Of a stretch of DNA of 64,000 nt, positions 1,348-43,078 are shown one piece after another; position 1 is the first letter of the stretch, and every line of letters begins with the position of its first letter. The stretch is taken from positions 22,271 to 86,270 of the IMG/VR virus record IMGVR_UViG_3300035034_001463; one strand, 5' to 3'. Source of the DNA: a virus. The position numbers were made by a program, and so were the translations under genes. Under the pieces are notes generated by a model. That model worked only from the letters and a program-made list of their open reading frames with translations, ran no database searches and was not told where the DNA came from.

Positions 1348-3144
1348 ATGACAACAGGATATATTTTAGGAATATCAAGGGGACACAACTCTGGTGCATG
1401 TCTATTAAAAGACGGAGAAATTGTGTTTTCAATTGAAGAAGAAAGATTGTCTCGTGCAAAATATGATGGTGGTCCACTTGCTGCTATAGTAAAAGTAAAG
1501 GAATACACTGATAAAATTGATTTTATGGTTATATCGCATACACAGAGTTTAGAAGAAACTTGTGCTCGTATTGATTTTATGGGAGACTTCGTATATACCG
1601 GTCTTGCTAGAAAATTAGGACTAATTGAAGACATTGGGAATATGGACGGACATCCTCAAGTAATTGATTTATCTGCGCATCATCATAAAATACATGCAGC
1701 ATTGTCATTCTATCACAGTGGATTTGAAGATGCAGTTTCGGTTGTTGTAGACGGCGCCGGTTCAAATATGTCCGGAACAGCAGGAAAAGTTAATTTTACA
1801 GCATGGGAAATAGAATCAATATTTGACTGTGCTTATCCTGCTTATTTTAAAACAATATTTAAGAATCTTGGAACTAGAGATCCTGTTCCTACACATTATG
1901 ACTTTACTGCTTCTAGTAAAAGACTAAATGAAGAAGGTACACATATGGAAATGGTATCTCAGAGTGCAGGCATTGTAAAAACTTATGAAGCTGTTACTGA
2001 ATATTGCGGATTTTTTGGAATTGAAGCTGGGAAGACAATGGGATTGTTTCCTTACGGAAAAGAAAATAACAATCTACCAAATATCTTTAATAAAGACGAT
2101 AAGTTTAAATTGAGTAATAAGAATCTCTTCATTCCAACTTATCCTCAAGGAGCAACTCTTAATGTATTTCAATACGACGGATTAGACCCTTGGCCAATTG
2201 AAGGTAAAGATATGACTTTATTACAAAACCGTAGAGATATGGCATATAAAGTACAGAAAGAAACACAAGAAAAAGTATTAGACTTGATATTAACTGCTTC
2301 TAAGCTAACCGGAAAGAAAAGAGTTGTATTAAGTGGAGGATATGGATTAAACTGTGTAGCCAATTACTACTATCTTGATAGATTAAACGAAGAAGGCATC
2401 GAATTATATGTTGAACCAATGTCAAATGATGGAGGAACAGCACTTGGTGTAGCATTGCTTTGGTATAGGATACAAAGCCAAGACGAAACTATAAACCCTA
2501 GGGTTAATAATGTTTATTTTGGACCAAAATACGATCATGACAGAAATGATATAGACAAATTTGCCAACAAATACAATGCTACCGTAGAAAAAACCAATGT
2601 TGAATCAGTAGTTAACTTAATGAGAGAAAAGAATATAGTAGCAATATGGCAAGGTAGATCTGAAAACGGTCCTAGAGCATTAGGTAATAGATCATTAATG
2701 TTTGATCCAACATTTAAAGACGGAAAAGACTTTGTAAATCAAATAAAGAATCGTGAATATTTTAGACCATTTGCTGGGTCTATACTAGCAGAACATGTTC
2801 ATGAATGGTTTGATCTTCGAGGAATGGATGAATCTCCTACAATGATGTATGCAGTTAATTGTAAAGATGGTGTTGAAGAAAAAATACCAAGTATTATTCA
2901 CGTTGACGGAACTTGTCGCATACAAACAGTTAAAGAAATTGACAATCAATTTTATTATGATGTTATAAGCGAATTCTATAAACAAACCGGAGTACCAGTA
3001 ATCTTTAATACTAGTTTTAACCTTGGTGGAGAACCACTTGTTGAAACATTAGATGATGCATTGCGTACATTGGAAAATAGTAAAATTGAATACATATATC
3101 TTCCAGAATACAAGTTATTACTAACAGTCAAGAACGAAGATTAA
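1348..3144 (+). CDS. Carbamoyltransferase, NodU/CmcH family (full length)
   Basis: Carbamoyl-phosphate-dependent O-carbamoyltransferase, likely acting on a sugar hydroxyl. The N-terminal ASKHA/Kae1-like domain starts ILGISRGHNSGACLLKDG and has EEERLSRAKYDGG, HHHKIHAALSFYHSGF (metal-binding histidines) and VVVDGAGSN. The C-terminal YrdC-like domain carries WQGRSENGPRALGNRS, FNTSFN and a typical end. At 598 residues it has the family's full length, unlike the shorter homologue at 45735-46709. The stop codon overlaps the convergent GmhB-like gene by 4 bases. It probably works with the GT9 gene on virion or host glycans. Confidence 0.93.
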   Translation: MTTGYILGISRGHNSGACLLKDGEIVFSIEEERLSRAKYDGGPLAAIVKVKEYTDKIDFMVISHTQSLEETCARIDFMGDFVYTGLARKLGLIEDIGNMDGHPQVIDLSAHHHKIHAALSFYHSGFEDAVSVVVDGAGSNMSGTAGKVNFTAWEIESIFDCAYPAYFKTIFKNLGTRDPVPTHYDFTASSKRLNEEGTHMEMVSQSAGIVKTYEAVTEYCGFFGIEAGKTMGLFPYGKENNNLPNIFNKDDKFKLSNKNLFIPTYPQGATLNVFQYDGLDPWPIEGKDMTLLQNRRDMAYKVQKETQEKVLDLILTASKLTGKKRVVLSGGYGLNCVANYYYLDRLNEEGIELYVEPMSNDGGTALGVALLWYRIQSQDETINPRVNNVYFGPKYDHDRNDIDKFANKYNATVEKTNVESVVNLMREKNIVAIWQGRSENGPRALGNRSLMFDPTFKDGKDFVNQIKNREYFRPFAGSILAEHVHEWFDLRGMDESPTMMYAVNCKDGVEEKIPSIIHVDGTCRIQTVKEIDNQFYYDVISEFYKQTGVPVIFNTSFNLGGEPLVETLDDALRTLENSKIEYIYLPEYKLLLTVKNED

Positions 3145-3752
3145 GCTATTTGTTCTAAATATAATGAGAAAGACCATAAGTCATCAAAGACCATGGTCTT
3201 TTTTGCTATGCTCTTATAGGTAAATCTGTTTAATAGCTCTTCGGTTTCATTACCGTAGCCAGTGCGAACTAAAACAGGAATGGCTCCTGCTTTTAAAGCA
3301 GCTTTCAAGTCACTTATTTTATCACCTACATAATATCCCTGTTTAAAGTTAAGGTATGGATGTTCTTTCTCACATCTTTTAAACATACCAATATTAGGTT
3401 TAACAAATGGATCTTGTTTTTGTGAACCAGCAGCATAATAGATAGCATCTATACTTGGACATCCTTCTTCACCAAGCAATTTTAGCATGTAATCATGCGT
3501 GTTATCAACGTCTTGAGGTGTATAAAGTCCTTTATCTATTCCACTTTGATTCGTTATAATAGCAATGCCGTGACCGATCATTCTTAATTTTGCTATAGCT
3601 TCTAAGCTACCGGGGATAGGATTAAAATCTTCAGGTTTCCAAACATAAGTACCTTTATCAATATTAATAGTACCGTCTCTGTCAATACCAATTACACATT
3701 TAGATCTTGAGAAGTTTTGAAACGAACTAGTTTCGAGTACATCAGCTGCCAA
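3141..3752 (-). CDS. gmhB: HAD-family histidinol/heptose-bisphosphate phosphatase (GmhB-like)
   Basis: Likely dephosphorylates D-glycero-manno-heptose 1,7-bisphosphate or a related sugar phosphate. The HAD motif I is GIDRDGTINID, then motif II IITNQSG, a K in FVKPNIGMF, and motif IV GYYVGDKISDLKAALKAG. An ATG exists at 3797, but I prefer the TTG at 3752: it has AGGAGA 8 bases upstream, overlaps the end of the cupin gene by 11 bases as in a coupled operon, and gives about 203 residues, near family length. It lacks an obvious zinc-binding Cys loop. It belongs to the minus-strand operon Nudix-cupin-phosphatase. Confidence 0.82.
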   Translation of the reverse strand: MAADVLETSSFQNFSRSKCVIGIDRDGTINIDKGTYVWKPEDFNPIPGSLEAIAKLRMIGHGIAIITNQSGIDKGLYTPQDVDNTHDYMLKLLGEEGCPSIDAIYYAAGSQKQDPFVKPNIGMFKRCEKEHPYLNFKQGYYVGDKISDLKAALKAGAIPVLVRTGYGNETEELLNRFTYKSIAKKTMVFDDLWSFSLYLEQIA

Positions 3753-4113
3753 TTTGTGAATCTCCTGGTACAATCCTAAAAGTATCATCAAATTCATTAG
3801 TTGTACTTGCTTCTGTTATAGAAGCATTGTCTGACAAAGCAATAAGTTGATGCGGAGTTAATGGATTCATAACAAAAGTATTACCTTCTTCAAGTATTTT
3901 TTCATAAACTACTCCTTGTTCAGTGTCGATCCACTTTAGTGTAAAATTACCTGAGTTTATAAACCAAGTTTTGTGTTTCTTTTTATGAAAATGCATGGAA
4001 GTTTTGTTTCCTTCTTTTAAGAAAACTAATATCTTACCACAATAGTTGTCAGTAGACGCCCATATTAGTTCATATCCCCAACCTTTTTTTATATAACCTT
4101 CTTGTTTGCTCAT
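3742..4113 (-). CDS. Cupin-domain protein (mannose-6-phosphate isomerase type II-like)
   Basis: A small beta-barrel of 123 residues. It begins KKGWGYELIW, like the KPWG(Y/W)E start of type II phosphomannose isomerase cupins. The metal site is MHFHKKKHKTWFINSG (HxH...), and the second cupin motif is TFVMNPLTPHQLIAL. The expected role is sugar-phosphate isomerisation or nucleotide-sugar epimerisation, which is inference. Its ATG overlaps the stop of the Nudix gene by one base (TAATG), and its 3' end overlaps the GmhB-like gene. These three form a compact sugar-nucleotide operon. Confidence 0.78.
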   Translation of the reverse strand: MSKQEGYIKKGWGYELIWASTDNYCGKILVFLKEGNKTSMHFHKKKHKTWFINSGNFTLKWIDTEQGVVYEKILEEGNTFVMNPLTPHQLIALSDNASITEASTTNEFDDTFRIVPGDSQIGS

Positions 4114-4550
4114 TAAATTTCCAATAATTCGTCTATTAGAGTTAAGACTGTTTCTAATTTAGTACGACTAACTCTACTTCTTAATGTGTTTGTTAAACCT
4201 ACATGTAATGGTTTTGGCCATTGATTGTACGAAACCCATGCCCATCCATCATGTTCATCATTTAATATAGGAACAAATTCGTTCTTTACTATGCACAAAT
4301 AAGTATGAAAATGAAACTTATCATCGTTGCTAACAAAAGTTTCTAAAGGAATTGTTTTGATAATTTTATCATCAAATCTAATTTCTTCTTGAATTTCTCT
4401 CTGCAAACCTTGCCAAGGAGTTTCTCCTTCTTCGGTTTTACCTCCGACAAGTCCCCAACAGGGTTTATTGTCTGTTCTATGCAGTAAAAGAAATCTTTTT
4501 GTTTCAAAACTATAAAACAAGGATCCTGTTGCGGTAATTTTCTGCGTCAT
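4113..4550 (-). CDS. Nudix hydrolase
   Basis: Hydrolyses a nucleoside diphosphate linked to another moiety, such as a nucleotide sugar. The Nudix box is clear at about residues 37-58: GGKTEEGETPWQGLQREIQE followed by E-I, fitting GX5EX7REUXEE. The N-terminus ITATGSLFYSFETKRFLLLHR and CWGLVGG are typical of the fold, as are 145 residues. It is the first gene of the minus-strand operon with the cupin and GmhB-like genes. The substrate cannot be read from sequence. GDP-mannose-type substrates are plausible given the neighbours. Confidence 0.9.
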   Translation of the reverse strand: MTQKITATGSLFYSFETKRFLLLHRTDNKPCWGLVGGKTEEGETPWQGLQREIQEEIRFDDKIIKTIPLETFVSNDDKFHFHTYLCIVKNEFVPILNDEHDGWAWVSYNQWPKPLHVGLTNTLRSRVSRTKLETVLTLIDELLEI

Positions 4551-15047: not shown

Positions 15048-15650
15048 ATGGCAGTTATAATAAAAGAACCTTATCATTGCACTTTTATTCATAATCCAAA
15101 AACAGGCGGTTCGAGTATTACTGCATGGCTTAAATCTAACTTTAATTGTAATACTACTAAACGACAAATGGGGGCAAATGTTGAACAGTCTAAAGAAATA
15201 TTTGGAGATTTAGGATGGACCTTTTCAACTGTAAGAAATCCTTGGAGATGGGCCGTAAGTTGGTACGAATTTAAATTAACTGAAAATCAAGAAAGAATGG
15301 AAAACCTAAATAATCCAAGATATTTTAATTCACATAAAAAGAAACATAATAAAGAATATCTAATTGAAACACAAAAATTTCTTGAATTAGGTTTTGAAAA
15401 TTGGTTATTTCAATCTAAACAAGGACCTCAATATCAAAATGTAATTCATTGTGATTATATAATGAAACAAGAAACTCTTTCAACGGATTTTAGATTAGTC
15501 CAGGATAGGTTAAATTGTTATACCGAATTACCAACCTTAGTACAATCTATCAAACTTAAACCATGGCGAGAATATTATACTCCTAAAACCGTTGATTTTA
15601 TAGCGAAAACCTACATCAAAGACATCAAAGAATTCAATTATCAATTTTGA
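15048..15650 (+). CDS. Sulfotransferase-family protein
   Basis: Likely transfers sulfate from PAPS to a carbohydrate. The 5'-phosphosulfate loop is FIHNPKTGGSSITAWL (residues 13-28), and the 3'-phosphate motif is FSTVRNPWRWAVSWY. At 200 residues it is close to bacterial and viral carbohydrate sulfotransferases. The ATG directly follows the gp4 stop. A sugar-modifying gene among virion genes suggests that a virion glycoprotein or the host surface polysaccharide is the acceptor; this is inference. Confidence 0.82.
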   Translation: MAVIIKEPYHCTFIHNPKTGGSSITAWLKSNFNCNTTKRQMGANVEQSKEIFGDLGWTFSTVRNPWRWAVSWYEFKLTENQERMENLNNPRYFNSHKKKHNKEYLIETQKFLELGFENWLFQSKQGPQYQNVIHCDYIMKQETLSTDFRLVQDRLNCYTELPTLVQSIKLKPWREYYTPKTVDFIAKTYIKDIKEFNYQF

Positions 15651-16908: not shown

Positions 16909-18297
16909 ATGGATTTTAATAAAGTATATAACAGGATAAAAGAAATTGATCTTAATCTTGATAAAAAGAATAAATTAACTGAAACAGCTTCAGTTAACCT
17001 ATCATTAACCGGAGAAAACGCATCTGAAGTTGAACAACTTATGTCAATGTTTAAGAATGCTGGTGTTGCTCCACCACCCGAGATGTCAAAACCACCTGAA
17101 ATGCCAGACGGTCCTCCAAAACCTTCACTTTCAGTTACTGGAATAGGCGCCGGTGAACTAGGCGCACCTATTGATGTTGATGCTCCTAATGGAATGGCAA
17201 AAGCAATGGATCGTGCAGCAGACGAACACGAAGCAATGATGGACAACGGAGTTGATGAGCGGGAAACAGATCCAGCGCAAGATGATTCGGATAGATGGGA
17301 ATCAATGCAATCGTGTATCGAAGTTGTTGACAAAGATTGGCAGAAAAAGAAATACTCATACGATGAAGCACAATCGATGGCAGCTTTAGTTGAAAAAGCA
17401 ACTGGTCAAGATGCTGTTTCAGTTTTACATTTCTTAGAAAATGAAGGTAGAGTAGAAGAAAAATCAGAAGATGTTGAAGAATGGGATAATTCACCAGACG
17501 AAGATTATCAAGATAATGATTACATGCAACATGATCTAGCAGGCGGTGCTGGACCCAAGAGTAAGATGTATTCGCCTGCAGCCAACGGAGACAATCCAAT
17601 GTCTGTTGGTGAAGAATTAACAAAGAAATTAGAGGATCTAAGTGTTATGGATAATAAAAGAACAGAGAGTATACGCGATCAGTTGTATGCAGCTCTAAGC
17701 GAAAAGATTGTAAAAGAAACCAAATGCAATTGCAATTGCGGTAAGTCACCATGTGAAAAGTGTGGAAAGACACATCATAATGTAAAAGAAGGCGCTTACA
17801 AAGATGGTGAAAAAGACAAAATCGAAAAGAAGGTAAAGTCCGGAGAATTCAAAAAAGGTAAAACTAAAAAGGCAGTTGGATCTTCAGGTAAGAAGCCAGG
17901 ACAGAACCATTCGGGACATTTAACAAAAGACGGACAAGGTAAAGTAAGGAAGTTTGGTGAAACAAAGAAACCAAACTTAGAAAATACAAGAGACACAAAG
18001 GGTCCAGACAAAAAGACCAAAGAAGCGTTTTCAGGAACAGGAAAGACTTCTCGTCCAGGCGATCAATTAAAGGGAACCCACAAAGCTGGTAAGAGTTCAC
18101 CTACTACAGGTCCTGAACAGAAGAATGTTACTAAGGGTAAATTAGTAGGTGATAGTAAGATTAACAATAAGAAAGCTATGTCCGAAAGCAAAGAAGTAAA
18201 TGATATTATTGCTTTAGCTACTCACAAGGTTGGCAATCAAAGAGTTGCTTCTAGTACTAAATCAATGATGGATCTTAAGAAATTAGCAGGACTATAA
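16909..18297 (+). CDS. Large hydrophilic internal-type protein with Cys/His cluster
   Basis: 462 residues, low complexity. The N-terminal third has SVNLSLTGENASEVEQLMSM, a segment I recall in marine T4-like phages, then a Pro/Gly stretch. Residues about 155-185 read YDEAQSMAALVEKATGQDAV. A CNCNCGKSPCEKCGKTHH cluster near residue 275 could bind zinc. The last 180 residues are Lys/Gly/Thr-rich and disordered, ending in a short conserved-looking helix (SMMDLKKLAGL). A DNA-binding internal or scaffold protein is a guess from composition. It is directly upstream of the terminase. Confidence 0.5.
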   Translation: MDFNKVYNRIKEIDLNLDKKNKLTETASVNLSLTGENASEVEQLMSMFKNAGVAPPPEMSKPPEMPDGPPKPSLSVTGIGAGELGAPIDVDAPNGMAKAMDRAADEHEAMMDNGVDERETDPAQDDSDRWESMQSCIEVVDKDWQKKKYSYDEAQSMAALVEKATGQDAVSVLHFLENEGRVEEKSEDVEEWDNSPDEDYQDNDYMQHDLAGGAGPKSKMYSPAANGDNPMSVGEELTKKLEDLSVMDNKRTESIRDQLYAALSEKIVKETKCNCNCGKSPCEKCGKTHHNVKEGAYKDGEKDKIEKKVKSGEFKKGKTKKAVGSSGKKPGQNHSGHLTKDGQGKVRKFGETKKPNLENTRDTKGPDKKTKEAFSGTGKTSRPGDQLKGTHKAGKSSPTTGPEQKNVTKGKLVGDSKINNKKAMSESKEVNDIIALATHKVGNQRVASSTKSMMDLKKLAGL

Positions 18298-18298
18298 A

Positions 18299-18937
18299 AT
18301 GAGTAGAAATGTAGACGGAGTTCTTGTTAAGAAGGCAAACCAACAGGAAAAATATACACAAGACCAAATTGATGATTTAGTTAGGTGTATGGATCCAGAA
18401 GATGGACATCATTATTTTTTAAGGAACTTCTTCTACATACAGCATTCTGTCAAAGGAGAATTGCTGTTTGACCCATTTTCTTACCAAACAAGATTATTAG
18501 ATAGTTATCACAAATATCGATTTAATATTAATATGTTACCTCGACAAACAGGAAAAACTACCTGTGCTGCAGGATATTTGCTTTGGTATGCAATGTTTAA
18601 TCCTAATCAAACTATTCTAATTGCGGCTCATAAATATACCGGTGCATTAGAAATTATGCAACGAATACGGTATGCTTATGAAATGTGTCCTGATCATGTA
18701 CGTGCAGGACAAACAGAATATAATAAAGGAAGTATTGTTTTTGAAAATGGTTCAAGAATTGTCGCTCAAACTACAACCAATAATACCGGTCGTGGTATGG
18801 CTATATCATTATTATATTGCTTGGACGGCGACACTACTACGGTCCAAATTCGAAATAAATTGACAAAAATAGAAGAAACTGTTACACTAAAAGATCTATA
18901 CGTAAGATTAACAGGAGCCACAAAGGTCCTAGTTTAA
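18299..18937 (+). CDS. gp17: Terminase large subunit N-part fused to N-intein (split gp17, gene 1 of 2)
   Basis: Residues 1-173 are the N-extein, the ATPase half of the packaging motor, with Walker A PRQTGKTT at 81-88 and the conserved HKYTGALEIMQRIRYAYE. Residue 174 is the intein Cys1 (18818-18820), followed by a short 39-residue N-intein, CLDGDTTTVQIRNKLTKIEE..., then LKDLYVRL and a stop. The GDT and LKDLYxRL pattern resembles the atypically split AceL-TerL intein (25-residue N-part). The break falls just before Walker B, so the gene product alone cannot hydrolyse ATP. Confidence 0.9.
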   Translation: MSRNVDGVLVKKANQQEKYTQDQIDDLVRCMDPEDGHHYFLRNFFYIQHSVKGELLFDPFSYQTRLLDSYHKYRFNINMLPRQTGKTTCAAGYLLWYAMFNPNQTILIAAHKYTGALEIMQRIRYAYEMCPDHVRAGQTEYNKGSIVFENGSRIVAQTTTNNTGRGMAISLLYCLDGDTTTVQIRNKLTKIEETVTLKDLYVRLTGATKVLV

Positions 18938-18952
18938 CAGAAAGCTTGTAAT

Positions 18953-19888
18953 ATGCAAATAAAAATTAAAAAGTTCATAGAACGTAATCAAAAAAGAAAT
19001 CAAAAACTATATCAATCTGAAATGAAAGAGCGTATTGATTATATTGTGTGTCCGGTTAGTAATCAACGATTGAGTATGATTAAATCATCTTATATCGTCA
19101 ACGTATTAGAAATGACAGTTGAAGAATACGACCGGTTGTATCCGGGTATTAGAGGTGTTAGCGAAGCAAGAAAACGAAATATTAAAATGGGTCTTAAAAA
19201 GATTGACGCAGAAACTGGCTTGTCTAAATACGAAGTTGGCCAAGTCAAAGCGAGAAAAATCTTAAAGCAAAAAGATTCTGATGGTCTAAGTGGGTATGAT
19301 AAAAAAGGTAAAAAAACTCGTGCAACACATATGGCAAATGTTGATGAATTTGGTAGGAATGGCTACCGCCGGCAAGCTGATGCCAGATTAACTACAATAT
19401 TGCCCAACGGTTTAACCATCGAACAAAATGCACACAAAAAACAGAAACAAACCTTAATTAAAAACAATAAAACAGGCACCGGTGGTGCTAGCAAACTTTC
19501 TAAAAGAGTTTTGAAACCGATTATTGATTGGTTAGATCAAAACGAAATCAAATATTATTTTGATAAAAACGAATATGGGATTAAAGATACAGCGACTGAA
19601 AATTATTATTTTTGGGATTTAACTATTCCGAAATTTAAGATGGCAATAGAATATCAATCAACGGCCTGGCATGCAGATCCAACTCTTTCTGAATCAGAAT
19701 GGAAGGATTGGAAACCACCTAGAGGTAAGAAGAAATCTGCAGATGAAGTATTAACATATGACTATAATAAAGCCCGTTCGTTATTTAAAAATAGACAATT
19801 TTTAACATATTACATCTGGCAATCAACGCAAGACCTAATCGTAAAGGAAATTATATGTTTGTTGAAAACAATGAATATGAAATATTAA
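18953..19888 (+). CDS. Homing endonuclease, VSR-like (EDxHD-type), inserted in the split terminase
   Basis: 311 residues, inserted between the two halves of the terminase. The C-terminal nuclease region is YYFWDLTIPKFKMAIEYQST, then AWHADPTLSESEW, SADEVLTYDYNKARSL and YYIWQSTQDL, matching the VSR-like family described in fractured-gene split-intein loci. The N-terminal half has DNA-binding-like helices. Its 3' end overlaps the C-intein gene by 34 bases. It probably drives homing of the whole split locus. No strong Shine-Dalgarno precedes its ATG, so expression may be low. Confidence 0.85.
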   Translation: MQIKIKKFIERNQKRNQKLYQSEMKERIDYIVCPVSNQRLSMIKSSYIVNVLEMTVEEYDRLYPGIRGVSEARKRNIKMGLKKIDAETGLSKYEVGQVKARKILKQKDSDGLSGYDKKGKKTRATHMANVDEFGRNGYRRQADARLTTILPNGLTIEQNAHKKQKQTLIKNNKTGTGGASKLSKRVLKPIIDWLDQNEIKYYFDKNEYGIKDTATENYYFWDLTIPKFKMAIEYQSTAWHADPTLSESEWKDWKPPRGKKKSADEVLTYDYNKARSLFKNRQFLTYYIWQSTQDLIVKEIICLLKTMNMKY

Positions 19889-21240
19889 CTCCAACAGGAT
19901 GGAAAGATTTCCGAGGAGTATCGTGTGCTGGTGAAAAAATTACATACAATATTGTTACAGATAATAATAGTATTAATGCAACATTGGGGCATTATTTTTT
20001 TATTAACAATGAAAGAAGAAAAGTAGCCGATTTGTTGGTTGGTGATATTATTGAAACAAATAATACCCATGAAAAAATTATATCAATTACAGAAAACCCG
20101 TCGTCGGTAGTTTATGATATAATTGAAGTAGATGAAGACAACCATAAGTTTATAGCTAATAATATTACAACTAAAAATTGTGACGAGTTTGCGTTTGTTC
20201 CACCTAACATTGCTATAGAATTTTGGACTTCTATATCACCTACTCTAGCAACTGGTGGACGTGCTATTATAACATCTACACCAAACTCAGACGAAGATAC
20301 TTTTGCTACTATCTGGAAAGAAGCAGAAAATAAATTTGACGAATATGGTAATGAAGGCACAGTGGGAGAAAATGGATTTCATTCTTTTACTGTTGCATGG
20401 AACGAACATCCGGACCGTGATGAGGAATGGAAAAAAGCAGAAACAGGTCGTATAGGTGAAGAAAGATTCCGGCGTGAATATGGGTGTGAATTCCTTGTAT
20501 TTGACGAAACTCTTATATCTTCTATTAAATTAGCAAACATGCCCGGGCGAGAACCATTACTTAACATGGGACAAACACGCTGGTATAAAAAACCAAATAA
20601 GAAATTTAGTTATGTTGTTGCACTTGATCCTTCTATGGGAACCGGCGGTAACGATGCTGCTATACAAGTATTTGAAGTTCCTACATATGAACAAATAGGA
20701 GAATGGAAACATAACTCTACAGCTATTCCTGGACAAATACGAGTACTAAGAGAAATATGTAATTATCTTGAAGAAATGTGCGGCTCCTCGTCTAACATTT
20801 ATTGGAGTGTTGAAAACAATACAATAGGAGAAGCTGCTCTTATTGTTATTGAAGATTTTGGTGAAGAAACTATTCCTGGATTGTTTGTATCAGAACCTAT
20901 GAGAAAAGGACATATACGCAAATTTCGAAAAGGATTTAATACCACGCACGGAACTAAAATTTCAGCTTGTGCTAAGTTAAAAACTCTAATCGAAAACGAT
21001 AAATTTAAAATTAATTCTAAACCTCTTATTTCTCAATTAAAGGATTTTGTTGCTCATTCTACAACCTACAAAGGAAAGAACGATCGACCAGATGATTTAG
21101 TATCTGCTATTCTTCTTACAATAAGAGTATTAACCGTAATGAAAGATTGGGACCCTGCTGTATATCAAACATTTGTTCAAGCCGACCCCGACGATTATTA
21201 CGATGTAAGACCAATGCCGATGTTTATAACAATGGGTTGA
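19855..21240 (+). CDS. gp17: C-intein fused to terminase large subunit C-part (split gp17, gene 2 of 2)
   Basis: Residues 1-108 are the C-intein: MFVENNEYEILTPTGWKDFR, TLGHYFFINN (block B-like His), VVYDIIEVDEDNHKFIAN (block F) and NITTKN with terminal Asn (20176-20178). Cys+1 (20179) starts the C-extein CDEFAFVPPN, the Walker B acidic pair. The nuclease domain begins with VVALDPSMGTGGNDAA near residue 258. After splicing the product would be about 526 residues (T4 gp17: 610). AAGGA lies 7 bases before ATG. Confidence 0.92.
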   Translation: MFVENNEYEILTPTGWKDFRGVSCAGEKITYNIVTDNNSINATLGHYFFINNERRKVADLLVGDIIETNNTHEKIISITENPSSVVYDIIEVDEDNHKFIANNITTKNCDEFAFVPPNIAIEFWTSISPTLATGGRAIITSTPNSDEDTFATIWKEAENKFDEYGNEGTVGENGFHSFTVAWNEHPDRDEEWKKAETGRIGEERFRREYGCEFLVFDETLISSIKLANMPGREPLLNMGQTRWYKKPNKKFSYVVALDPSMGTGGNDAAIQVFEVPTYEQIGEWKHNSTAIPGQIRVLREICNYLEEMCGSSSNIYWSVENNTIGEAALIVIEDFGEETIPGLFVSEPMRKGHIRKFRKGFNTTHGTKISACAKLKTLIENDKFKINSKPLISQLKDFVAHSTTYKGKNDRPDDLVSAILLTIRVLTVMKDWDPAVYQTFVQADPDDYYDVRPMPMFITMG

Positions 21241-42166: not shown

Positions 42167-42217
42167 TATTTGCTTTCAGGAAAAGAACGAAAAAGATTTA
42201 ACAAAGAGAGTAACACA

Positions 42218-43078
42218 ATGACAGGTATAAAAGATAGAGGTAGAGGATGCTTAATTGGATTAGCAATAGGCGATGCATTAGGTACTTCGGTTGAATTTAA
42301 GGAACGAGATACGTACGATCCAGTAACTAGGATGAGAGGCGGCGGAGCATTTAATTTACAACCAGGTGAATGGACAGATGATACAAGTATGGCGCTTGCC
42401 TTAGCCCGTTCTATTATTAGCTATAAAGGCATCAATCAAGTTGACATACTTAAGAACTTTAGTGATTGGTATAATAAAGGTGCATTTTCTCACAATAATC
42501 TCTGTTTTGATATAGGTAATACTACTCGAACAGCAATTGATAAATTTGATAAAGGCGGCCAAATTGAACCAGTTTGTGGTTCAACACACGGACTTGATTC
42601 TGGTAACGGTGGTATAATGAGACTTGCACCGGCTCCTATGATTGCTAAGACTCGAAAACAAGCAGTAGAATATTCCGTTGCTCAATCAATTACTACACAT
42701 GCATCTCCAGATTGTGTAGACATGGCAGAATATCTAGGAGGAGTACTTTGGGATATAATTGATACAGGCGGAACCAAAGTTGAAGATCGCTGGGATGTTG
42801 CTGAAAAATACCGAGCACAAATAAGTTCTTCCGGATATGTCGTACATACAGCAGAAGCAGCATTTTGGTGTGTTGAAAAGACTGAATCGTTTAAAGATGC
42901 GGTGTTGTTAGCAGCTAATTTAGGAGACGATGCTGATACAGTTGCTGCCGTAACTGGGCAAATAGCAGGAGCATTTTATGGATATTCGAATATTCCTAAA
43001 GAATGGTTAGAAGTTCTTGCATGGCATGATAAGATATTAAAGATGGCAGACATTATAATGGATTATCGTTCTACTTAG
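42218..43078 (+). CDS. ADP-ribosylglycohydrolase (DraG/ARH family)
   Basis: Removes ADP-ribose from proteins or other acceptors. GCLIGLAIGDALGTSVEF, GEWTDDTSMALALARS (metal DD motif), GNGGIMRLAPAPM and NLGDDADTVAAVTGQIAGAF (second metal site) are the complete family motifs. The ATG at 42218 with AAAGAGAG upstream is preferred over a TTG at 42170. T4 uses ADP-ribosyl transferases; a hydrolase could reverse host or phage ADP-ribosylation or counter defence, which is inference. Confidence 0.92.
   Translation: MTGIKDRGRGCLIGLAIGDALGTSVEFKERDTYDPVTRMRGGGAFNLQPGEWTDDTSMALALARSIISYKGINQVDILKNFSDWYNKGAFSHNNLCFDIGNTTRTAIDKFDKGGQIEPVCGSTHGLDSGNGGIMRLAPAPMIAKTRKQAVEYSVAQSITTHASPDCVDMAEYLGGVLWDIIDTGGTKVEDRWDVAEKYRAQISSSGYVVHTAEAAFWCVEKTESFKDAVLLAANLGDDADTVAAVTGQIAGAFYGYSNIPKEWLEVLAWHDKILKMADIIMDYRST

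What the first reader, a model, noticed from the sequence alone, without database searches (positions are those of the whole stretch)
18299..21240. Fractured terminase gene: atypically split intein with a VSR-like homing endonuclease between the halves
The gp17 ATPase is cut directly before Walker B. Gene 1 ends in a 39-residue N-intein starting with Cys (CLDGDTTT), gene 2 starts with a 108-residue C-intein ending in Asn before Cys (TTKN|CDEFAFV), and a complete nuclease gene lies between. Established: fractured-gene split inteins with such nucleases, and the AceL-TerL intein from terminase with a very short N-part. Inference: this is a new member of the AceL-TerL type, with N- and C-parts differing in length from it and the nuclease still in place. 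The catalytic core is whole only after trans-splicing, so packaging depends on it.
Basis: partly seen in the sequence, partly recalled or inferred. Interest (0 to 1): 0.92.

Follow-up and report, generated by a model that had tools for sequence, protein, structure and literature searches.

The report
Split-intein terminase with homing nuclease
In this uncultured T4-like phage the gene for the DNA-packaging motor is broken in two by a mobile element, and the two protein halves are predicted to be stitched together by a split intein while a nuclease encoded between them spreads the element to other phages.

Summary
The terminase gene (T4 gp17 family) is two genes, with a 39-residue N-intein (Cys1) and a 108-residue C-intein (Asn before Cys+1) at the break and a 311-residue nuclease gene between. 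A close intein-free relative encodes one 526-codon terminase, exactly the predicted spliced product. The C-intein resembles the Cat/AceL-TerL atypical split intein in sequence and fold.

AceL/Cat-type inteins sit at a different terminase site (before CEFLG; 47 of 47 loci), where inspected loci mostly carry a GIY-YIG nuclease. The window's site (LLY|CDEFAF, inside Walker B) is shared with Salicola phage SCTP-2 and about 15 metagenomic phages.

New from the relatives: near-identical elements in diverged terminases (recent homing); one N-terminal nuclease domain joined to two unrelated catalytic domains (VSR-like here, HNH elsewhere); and, in most relatives and in AceL-type loci, a copy of the homing site abutting a T4-type late promoter upstream of the nuclease, resembling I-TevI's operator. 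The window lacks that copy. Some relatives have terminases in three or four pieces. Splicing, cutting and autorepression are inferred, not shown.

The parts
18299..18817 (+). N-extein: TerL residues 1-173 (Walker A PRQTGKTT; ends SLLY, the first part of the Walker B strand)
   Evidence: Terminase_6N E 8e-10; PHROG 5989/36964; colinear with intein-free L004
18818..18934 (+). N-intein, 39 aa (CLDGDTTTVQIRNKLTKIEETVTLKDLYVRLTGATKVLV); stop 18935-18937
   Evidence: Absent from L004; length 39 in L099-L105, 34-36 in L106/L108; residues conserved
18953..19366 (+). Nuclease N-terminal domain (aa 1-138), probable DNA-recognition part, degenerate ROS/MucR-like
   Evidence: 45-67% identical across all metagenomic nucleases at this site and 38% to SCTP-2 gp225; homologues L002 and L111 match Pfam ROS_MUCR
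19367..19888 (+). Nuclease linker and C-terminal VSR-like (EDxHD-type) catalytic domain: E207, D222, E233, H240, D270
   Evidence: phage VSR endonuclease homologues; bridge to Vsr/DUF559; homologous only in L099 and L113 among the relatives
19843..19848 (+). Ribosome-binding-like AAAGGA for gene 2, inside the nuclease gene
   Evidence: Sequence
19855..20178 (+). C-intein, 108 aa, ending ..TTKN before Cys+1 (TxxH block TLGH; no penultimate His)
   Evidence: CatC 6DSL_B by sequence E 3e-5 and profile 3e-9; AF2 model (pLDDT 71) matches 6DSL_B first in the PDB; alignment A8
20179..21240 (+). C-extein: TerL residues 174-526 (Walker B CDE, C-motif region, RNase H-like nuclease) plus stop
   Evidence: Terminase_6C E 3e-6; colinear with L004
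18818..20178 (+). Whole element (1361 bp; not a multiple of 3, so no single reading frame) missing from intein-free relatives

Best explanation
A homing element is inserted inside the Walker B codons of terL in a T4-like phage. It consists of the two parts of an atypically split intein with a free-standing homing endonuclease gene between them. The two gene products associate through the intein parts. Cys1 and Cys+1 carry out class-1 protein trans-splicing, the intein is released, and an uninterrupted 526-residue terminase is formed; this is needed because Walker A lies in one product and the Walker B Asp-Glu plus the nuclease domain in the other. The nuclease, by way of its N-terminal domain, is predicted to recognise the intein-free terL site (around TGTGACGAGTTTGCGTTTGT) and to cut it with its VSR-like domain, so that repair from the element-bearing copy spreads the element during co-infection. 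Shown here: anatomy, homology, empty sites, selection on the element in relatives, and recent transfer of a sister element. Inferred: splicing activity, cutting, the identity of the target and the dependence of packaging on splicing.
For: Exact anatomy. Intein-free L004 equals the spliced product, 526 codons, no gap. Cys1, TxxH, terminal Asn and Cys+1 present; HINT fold with CatC as top match. Contiguous versions of the intein at the same site in L112, L118 and L119, without a nuclease. The element is under purifying selection: dN/dS 0.10-0.17 for all four element parts in L101 v L104; 0.19 for the C-intein in window v L099. Mobility: L101 and L105 share an almost identical element (dS about 0.00-0.01 in each part) inside terminases with dS 0.77 and 1.99; identity is about 100% from the N-intein start to the C-intein end and 64-88% in most of the adjacent flank. 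On a terL tree with 15 element-bearing and 107 intein-free rows at least 11 changes of state are needed, 9 forced by supported branches. No Rfam intron matches.
Against: No splicing or cleavage data exist. The penultimate His of the C-intein is Lys, and Pfam's intein model does not reach its cut-off (E 0.25). The homing evidence is for HNH-bearing relatives; window v L099 is too diverged for the dS test. The nuclease model had low confidence (pLDDT 46), so the VSR fold is not shown. No dip in divergence or co-conversion tract is seen between the window and L004.
Confidence: 0.87

Rival explanations
1. Genes in pieces without splicing: the two halves work as a non-covalent complex and the intein parts are dead remains, as with the split ribonucleotide reductase that keeps its function as two peptides.
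For: A nuclease can split a phage gene into two working peptides (PMC10448857, citing Friedrich et al.).
Against: The N-intein and C-intein are conserved in length and catalytic residues across relatives and under purifying selection. The break runs through the Walker B strand, an unlikely place for a two-chain ATPase. Contiguous versions of the same intein exist.
Confidence: 0.05
2. The interruption is removed from the RNA (group I or II intron) rather than from the protein, as reported for terL of the phage ICP1.
For: terL of ICP1 is spliced at the RNA level (PMC10448857).
Against: No Rfam match up to E 1 in 18200-20700; intein blocks at both edges; the coding parts at the junctions are intein, not exon.
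Confidence: 0.02
3. A decayed element: the intein still splices but the nuclease no longer acts or is not expressed, so the element no longer spreads.
For: The window lacks the homing-site copy and the TATAAATA promoter found upstream of the nuclease in most relatives. A sister VSR nuclease (L113) carries an in-frame stop codon. Intein-only versions exist.
Against: The window's nuclease frame is intact and complete with all conserved acidic residues and His, and matches L099 at 69% over its full length.
Confidence: 0.2
4. The same intein allele as AceL-TerL/GOS-TerL with different part lengths.
For: Same host gene family, same atypical split position, CatC is the nearest solved relative.
Against: Different insertion site in terL (CDEFAF against CEFLG in 47 of 47 Cat-type loci), about 30% identity to CatC, unrelated nuclease (GIY-YIG in 7 of 8 Cat-type loci inspected).
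Confidence: 0.05

Closest known systems
Fractured genes with split inteins and VSR-like homing endonucleases (Dassa et al. 2009; paper not held here, known from citations in PMC10448857 and PMC6892783 and from memory)
   Same: Essential phage gene broken by the two parts of a split intein with a free-standing VSR-like nuclease gene between them
   Different: Atypical split after about 39 residues; insertion in the Walker B strand of a T4-type terminase; the nuclease has a N-terminal domain that in sister loci is joined to an unrelated HNH domain
AceL-TerL / GOS-TerL / Cat split inteins (25/104 Cys1, 37/115 Ser1, 30/104; PMC11766414)
   Same: Terminase host, atypical split, homologous C-intein and HINT fold (6DSL)
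   Different: Other insertion site (EFE|CEFLG), GIY-YIG nuclease in 7 of 8 loci inspected, about 30% identity to CatC
Salicola phage SCTP-2 terL (gp267, gp225, gp224; MF360958)
   Same: Same insertion site LLY|CDEFAF, C-intein 43-47% identical, N-terminal domain of the neighbouring nuclease 36-38% identical
   Different: The two halves lie 39 kb apart, there is a further split intein at Walker A and a contiguous intein in the C part, and the nuclease is HNH-like
Fractured terL of T4-like phages HY03, phiR1-RT, PspYZU05 and Campylobacter phages CPX and CP21
   Same: terL in pieces with homologous intein parts
   Different: Site three residues further on (IDE|CAF) or elsewhere; other nucleases (199 aa) or halves about 22 kb apart on opposite strands (CPX)
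I-TevI of phage T4 (PMC2988022)
   Same: Homing-site-like sequence overlapping a late promoter upstream of the nuclease gene, as in the sister loci
   Different: Group I intron, GIY-YIG nuclease; the window itself lacks the sequence

Membership tests
Fractured gene with split intein | Host gene in two open reading frames that is one frame in relatives | tested here: met
   L004 526 codons, no gap; 146 loci uninterrupted at all three terL sites scored
Fractured gene with split intein | N-intein at the end of the first frame and C-intein at the start of the second | tested here: met
Fractured gene with split intein | Free-standing endonuclease gene between the halves | tested here: met
   311 aa, 18953-19888
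Fractured gene with split intein | Protein trans-splicing | not testable with these tools
   Needs co-expression
AceL-TerL / Cat atypical split TerL intein | Short N-part and long C-part, split before block B, in TerL | tested here: met
   39/108; TxxH block lies in the C-part
AceL-TerL / Cat atypical split TerL intein | Homologous intein sequence and fold | tested here: met
   6DSL_B is top by sequence and fold
AceL-TerL / Cat atypical split TerL intein | Same insertion site in terL (before CEFLG) | tested here: not met
   Window CDEFAF; 47 of 47 Cat-type loci CEFLG
EDxHD / VSR-like homing endonuclease | Conserved E, D, H, D residues | tested here: met
   E207, D222, H240, D270
EDxHD / VSR-like homing endonuclease | Significant match to Vsr families or fold | tested here: inconclusive
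   No direct Pfam, NCBIfam or PDB match; homologue L098 matches TIGR00632 at E 0.013; profile link to L111, which matches DUF559/Vsr; AF2 model unusable
EDxHD / VSR-like homing endonuclease | Cuts the intein-free allele | not testable with these tools
   Needs a cleavage assay
Class 1 intein | Cys/Ser at 1, TxxH, C-terminal Asn, Cys/Ser/Thr at +1 | tested here: met
   Cys1, TLGH, Asn, Cys+1
Class 1 intein | Penultimate His before the terminal Asn | tested here: not met
   Lys (TTKN); also Lys in L099, L113 and L108. Active inteins without it are known (AceL NrdHF, a class 3 intein, PMC7891396)
I-TevI-like autorepressed nuclease | Homing-site-like operator overlapping a late promoter | tested here: not met
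   Absent in the window; present in L099-L101, L103-L105, L113, L114, L116, weaker in L104-like and L115

The most novel reading that the evidence does not exclude
The terminase site LLY|CDEF is served by a modular homing system: one site-recognition domain is combined with interchangeable catalytic domains (VSR-like or HNH), expression of the nuclease is held down by an operator that is a copy of the homing site lying against a late promoter (the I-TevI logic, evolved again at two terminase sites with unrelated nucleases), and stacking of such elements yields terminases built from up to four polypeptides by three split inteins.
Probability: 0.5. Interest if true: 0.78.

Novelty: new variant of a known kind. 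Interest (0 to 1): 0.62.

Why it matters
The packaging ATPase is essential, so the element survives only if splicing is very efficient; such inteins are sought as protein-ligation tools, and this family adds many natural 39/108-112 pairs with Asn or Gln ends. The relatives give a natural experiment on how homing nucleases keep a target while changing their cutting domain, and a sequence-defined prediction of the binding site. If the homing-site copy at the late promoter is an operator, the autorepression known from I-TevI would be a general device of fractured genes and not a peculiarity of T4. Three- and four-piece terminases ask how several split inteins in one protein avoid joining the wrong parts.

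Tried and rejected
Direct VSR matches by Pfam, NCBIfam and PDB sequence search failed for the nuclease; the best PDB profile match (a glutathione S-transferase, E 0.003) has no conserved nuclease residues and was taken as chance. The AF2 model of the nuclease was unusable, so no fold search was made with it. Single-sequence searches of viral contigs with the nuclease or the C-intein found nothing; the N-domain alignment with SCTP-2 gp225 opened the family. An alignment of ten C-inteins was too diverse to search with. A co-conversion tract between the window and L004 was looked for and not seen. RNA intron: rejected. A second copy of the element or nuclease in the same contig: none. A copy of the homing site elsewhere in the window: none with fewer than 5 mismatches. 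The automatic site table misreads some inserted sites (for example L100, L101) because outputs were joined loosely; the statements on those loci rest. The trees of the nuclease N-domain and the C-intein have low support, so the direction of the domain exchange is left open.

Full report
1. Observation. The window is part of an 86,270-bp virus record of a T4-like phage: gp32-like and UvsX-like proteins, tail sheath, tail tube and head-closure proteins surround the locus. Gene 1 (18299-18937) holds TerL residues 1-173 and a 39-residue N-intein. Gene 2 (19855-21240) holds a 108-residue C-intein and 353 residues of TerL. A 311-codon gene lies between them and overlaps gene 2 by 34 bp. Walker A is in gene 1. 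The junction lies within the Walker B strand (SLLY|CDE), so the Asp-Glu and the RNase H-like nuclease domain are in gene 2. PHROG 36964 meets in both genes at the same profile position, 522.

2. Empty sites. Of the terL relatives in IMG/VR, the 80 best are uninterrupted. The nearest, L004, is 84% identical on both sides of the junction by tblastn. Its terL has 526 codons, the exact sum of the two extein parts, and the DNA alignment breaks at 18817/20179, leaving a 1361-bp element. In a wider set, 146 loci are uninterrupted at all three sites scored.

3. The intein. Cys1, a TxxH block (TLGH), a terminal Asn and Cys+1 are present; the penultimate residue is Lys instead of His. The nearest solved protein is CatC, chain B of 6DSL (phmmer E 3e-5; profile E 3e-9), and the AF2 model of the C-intein (pLDDT 71) also has 6DSL_B as first match among solved structures, followed by other inteins. 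Cat is the consensus of AceL-TerL and GOS-TerL (PMC11766414). At the same site L112, L118 and L119 have the intein in one piece of 148-159 residues and no nuclease, so the break lies where the contiguous form has a linker.

4. Not the AceL-TerL allele. A search with the printed CatC sequence gave loci 78-90% identical to it. Of 47 examined, 45 were scored as followed by CEFLG and the other two read SIISHN-CEFLG when inspected. In 7 of 8 inspected loci the part before the break ends VEFE-C and a GIY-YIG gene of 189 codons lies between the parts; the eighth (L253) has none. A GIY-YIG gene of this kind was recognised in 61 of the 80 fetched contigs. The same site is the second break in L101 and L114. 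The window's site is therefore a different one in the same protein, shared with SCTP-2.

5. The nuclease. Its N-terminal 138 residues are shared by every split-site relative: 45-67% identity with the metagenomic ones and 38% with SCTP-2 gp225. Its C-terminal part is shared only with L099 and L113 (71%); the others carry a different, HNH-like domain (PHROG 5104, 23051 and endonuclease VII), with no similarity to the window's apart from a short linker match in L108. Thus one N-terminal domain occurs with two unrelated catalytic domains at one site. The C-inteins fall into two groups that go with this: those of window, L099 and L113 end TKN, while most HNH-type ones end SHQ; L108 is the exception, with HNH and TKN. 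The 5' half of the element (N-intein and nuclease N-domain) is about as similar between the two groups as within them, whereas the 3' half is not. That suggests exchange of the 3' half as a unit; the tree support is too low to fix a direction. The VSR-like call rests on conserved E207, D222, E233, H240 and D270, on homology to the VSR endonuclease gene between the split DNA polymerase halves of phage PTm1, on a weak match of that homologue to TIGR00632, and on a profile link (hhalign probability 94%) to L111, a ROS/MucR-plus-DUF559 protein. It is likely, not proven.

6. Mobility. L101 and L105 have elements with dS 0.00-0.01, while the exteins differ with dS 0.77 and 1.99. Along the DNA, identity is about 100% from the N-intein start to the C-intein end and falls to 64-88% in most of the adjacent flank. 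L101 v L104 shows the same pattern less sharply (extein dS 2.6-3.1, element 0.4-0.9). On a FastTree tree of 122 terminases, 15 element-bearing rows need at least 11 changes of state, 9 of them forced by supported branches. dN/dS of the element parts in L101 v L104 is 0.10-0.17. This is direct evidence of recent spread for HNH-bearing sisters; for the VSR-bearing window it is inference, since window v L099 is saturated in most parts.

7. A homing-site copy at a late promoter, in relatives. In L099, L100, L101, L103-L105, L113, L114 and L116 the stretch just before the nuclease start reads TGAC(G/A)AGTTTGCATTTGTATAAATA or very nearly so: a near copy of the first 18-20 nt of the C-extein (TGTGACGAGTTTGC., coding CDEFAFV) directly against TATAAATA, the T4-type late promoter motif. 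In the 18-base test 0-3 of 500 Markov-generated controls reach the observed match in each of the eight distinct loci tested; L115 is weaker (19 of 500) and L108 has a diverged form (9 of 500). The stop codon of gene 1 (TGA) lies in the copy. In the Cat-type loci the GIY-YIG gene is preceded by TGTGAGTTTTTTGGATTATAAATA or similar, a like copy of its own site (TGTGAGTTCTTAGGA.), in the same position relative to TATAAATA in 42 of 43 distinct loci, and TATAAATA is present in 60 of 61; individually these matches are weaker, and it is the constant position that speaks for them. I-TevI has this arrangement and represses itself through it (PMC2988022). The autorepressor reading is inference. Loci share ancestry, so they are not independent counts; the two sites with unrelated nucleases are. 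The window lacks both the copy and TATAAATA upstream of the nuclease (409 of 500 controls match as well), so its nuclease must be expressed differently or poorly.

8. Context. Fractured or scattered terL with homologous intein parts occurs in GenBank phages that are not annotated as such: SCTP-2 (pieces 39 kb apart), Campylobacter CPX (22 kb apart, opposite strands), CP21, HY03, phiR1-RT, PspYZU05, Serratia 92A1, Providencia PSTRCR_127. L101 and L114 have terL in three genes and L117 in four genes with three split inteins. Terminases are the main intein hosts in mycobacteriophages as well, there with contiguous inteins (PMC5050341).

9. Verdict. A real fractured terminase with an atypically split intein: a new variant of a known kind. 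Splicing is very likely on sequence grounds but untested. The most interesting parts, the shared recognition domain with exchanged cutting domains and the homing-site copy at the promoter, come from the relatives and should be credited to the family, not to this window.

Noticed in passing
L117 373-5438: terL in four genes with three split inteins (Walker A GK|C..T, LLY|CDEF, EFQ|CEFL) and two endonuclease genes (HNH-type 1611-2852, GIY-YIG-like 3587-4366); a packaging motor that would need three trans-splicing events.
   Followed up: partly
L101 4336-8737 and L114 5536-9957: terL in three genes: the window-type break plus a second break at REYG|CEFL with another small nuclease gene.
   Followed up: partly
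L001 5992-8076 and L085 2440-3333 (Salicola phage SCTP-2): terL pieces 39 kb apart; gp267 begins with the C-part of a further split intein at Walker A and gp224 holds an extra contiguous intein; the piece with the terminase start was not located.
   Followed up: partly
L086 3004-4332 and L087 2037-2753 (Campylobacter phage CPX): N- and C-intein-bearing halves of terL about 22 kb apart on opposite strands; the same pattern of two separate hits in many other Campylobacter jejuni phages.
   Followed up: partly
L090 2031-4883 (HY03), L091 2031-4880 (phiR1-RT), L096 2037-4871 (PspYZU05): Fractured terL with a 199-aa endonuclease between the halves at IDE|CAF, three residues from the window's site, annotated as two terminase genes.
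   Followed up: partly
L095 1011-6284 (Campylobacter phage IBB_35): terL with inteins at three sites (Walker A contiguous, RGYSC|C split, VVDE|C split).
   Followed up: no
L192-L271, upstream of the GIY-YIG gene: Near copy of the CEFLG homing site against TATAAATA in 42 of 43 distinct Cat/AceL-type loci, as at the window-type site of other relatives.
   Followed up: yes
L113 6204-7121: VSR-type nuclease with one in-frame stop (PP*G where the window has PPRG): a decaying copy.
   Followed up: yes
L100 3349-4974, L113 4579-6177, L116 324-1949: Large contiguous intein (over 300 residues) at Walker A of terL in addition to the window-type break.
   Followed up: no
window 18860-18888: TTGACA-17-TACACT with TG before the second hexamer inside the N-intein: a possible promoter for the nuclease in place of the missing late promoter; consensus match only.
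   Followed up: no
window 13096, 15655, 21240, 23191, 29795: ATAAATAC, five times, all on the + strand and mostly just before genes; possibly this phage's late promoter form (number is as expected by chance).
   Followed up: no
window 42170-43078, 1348-3144, 15048-15650: ADP-ribosylglycohydrolase, Nol-like carbamoyltransferase and sulfotransferase genes in the same phage.
   Followed up: no
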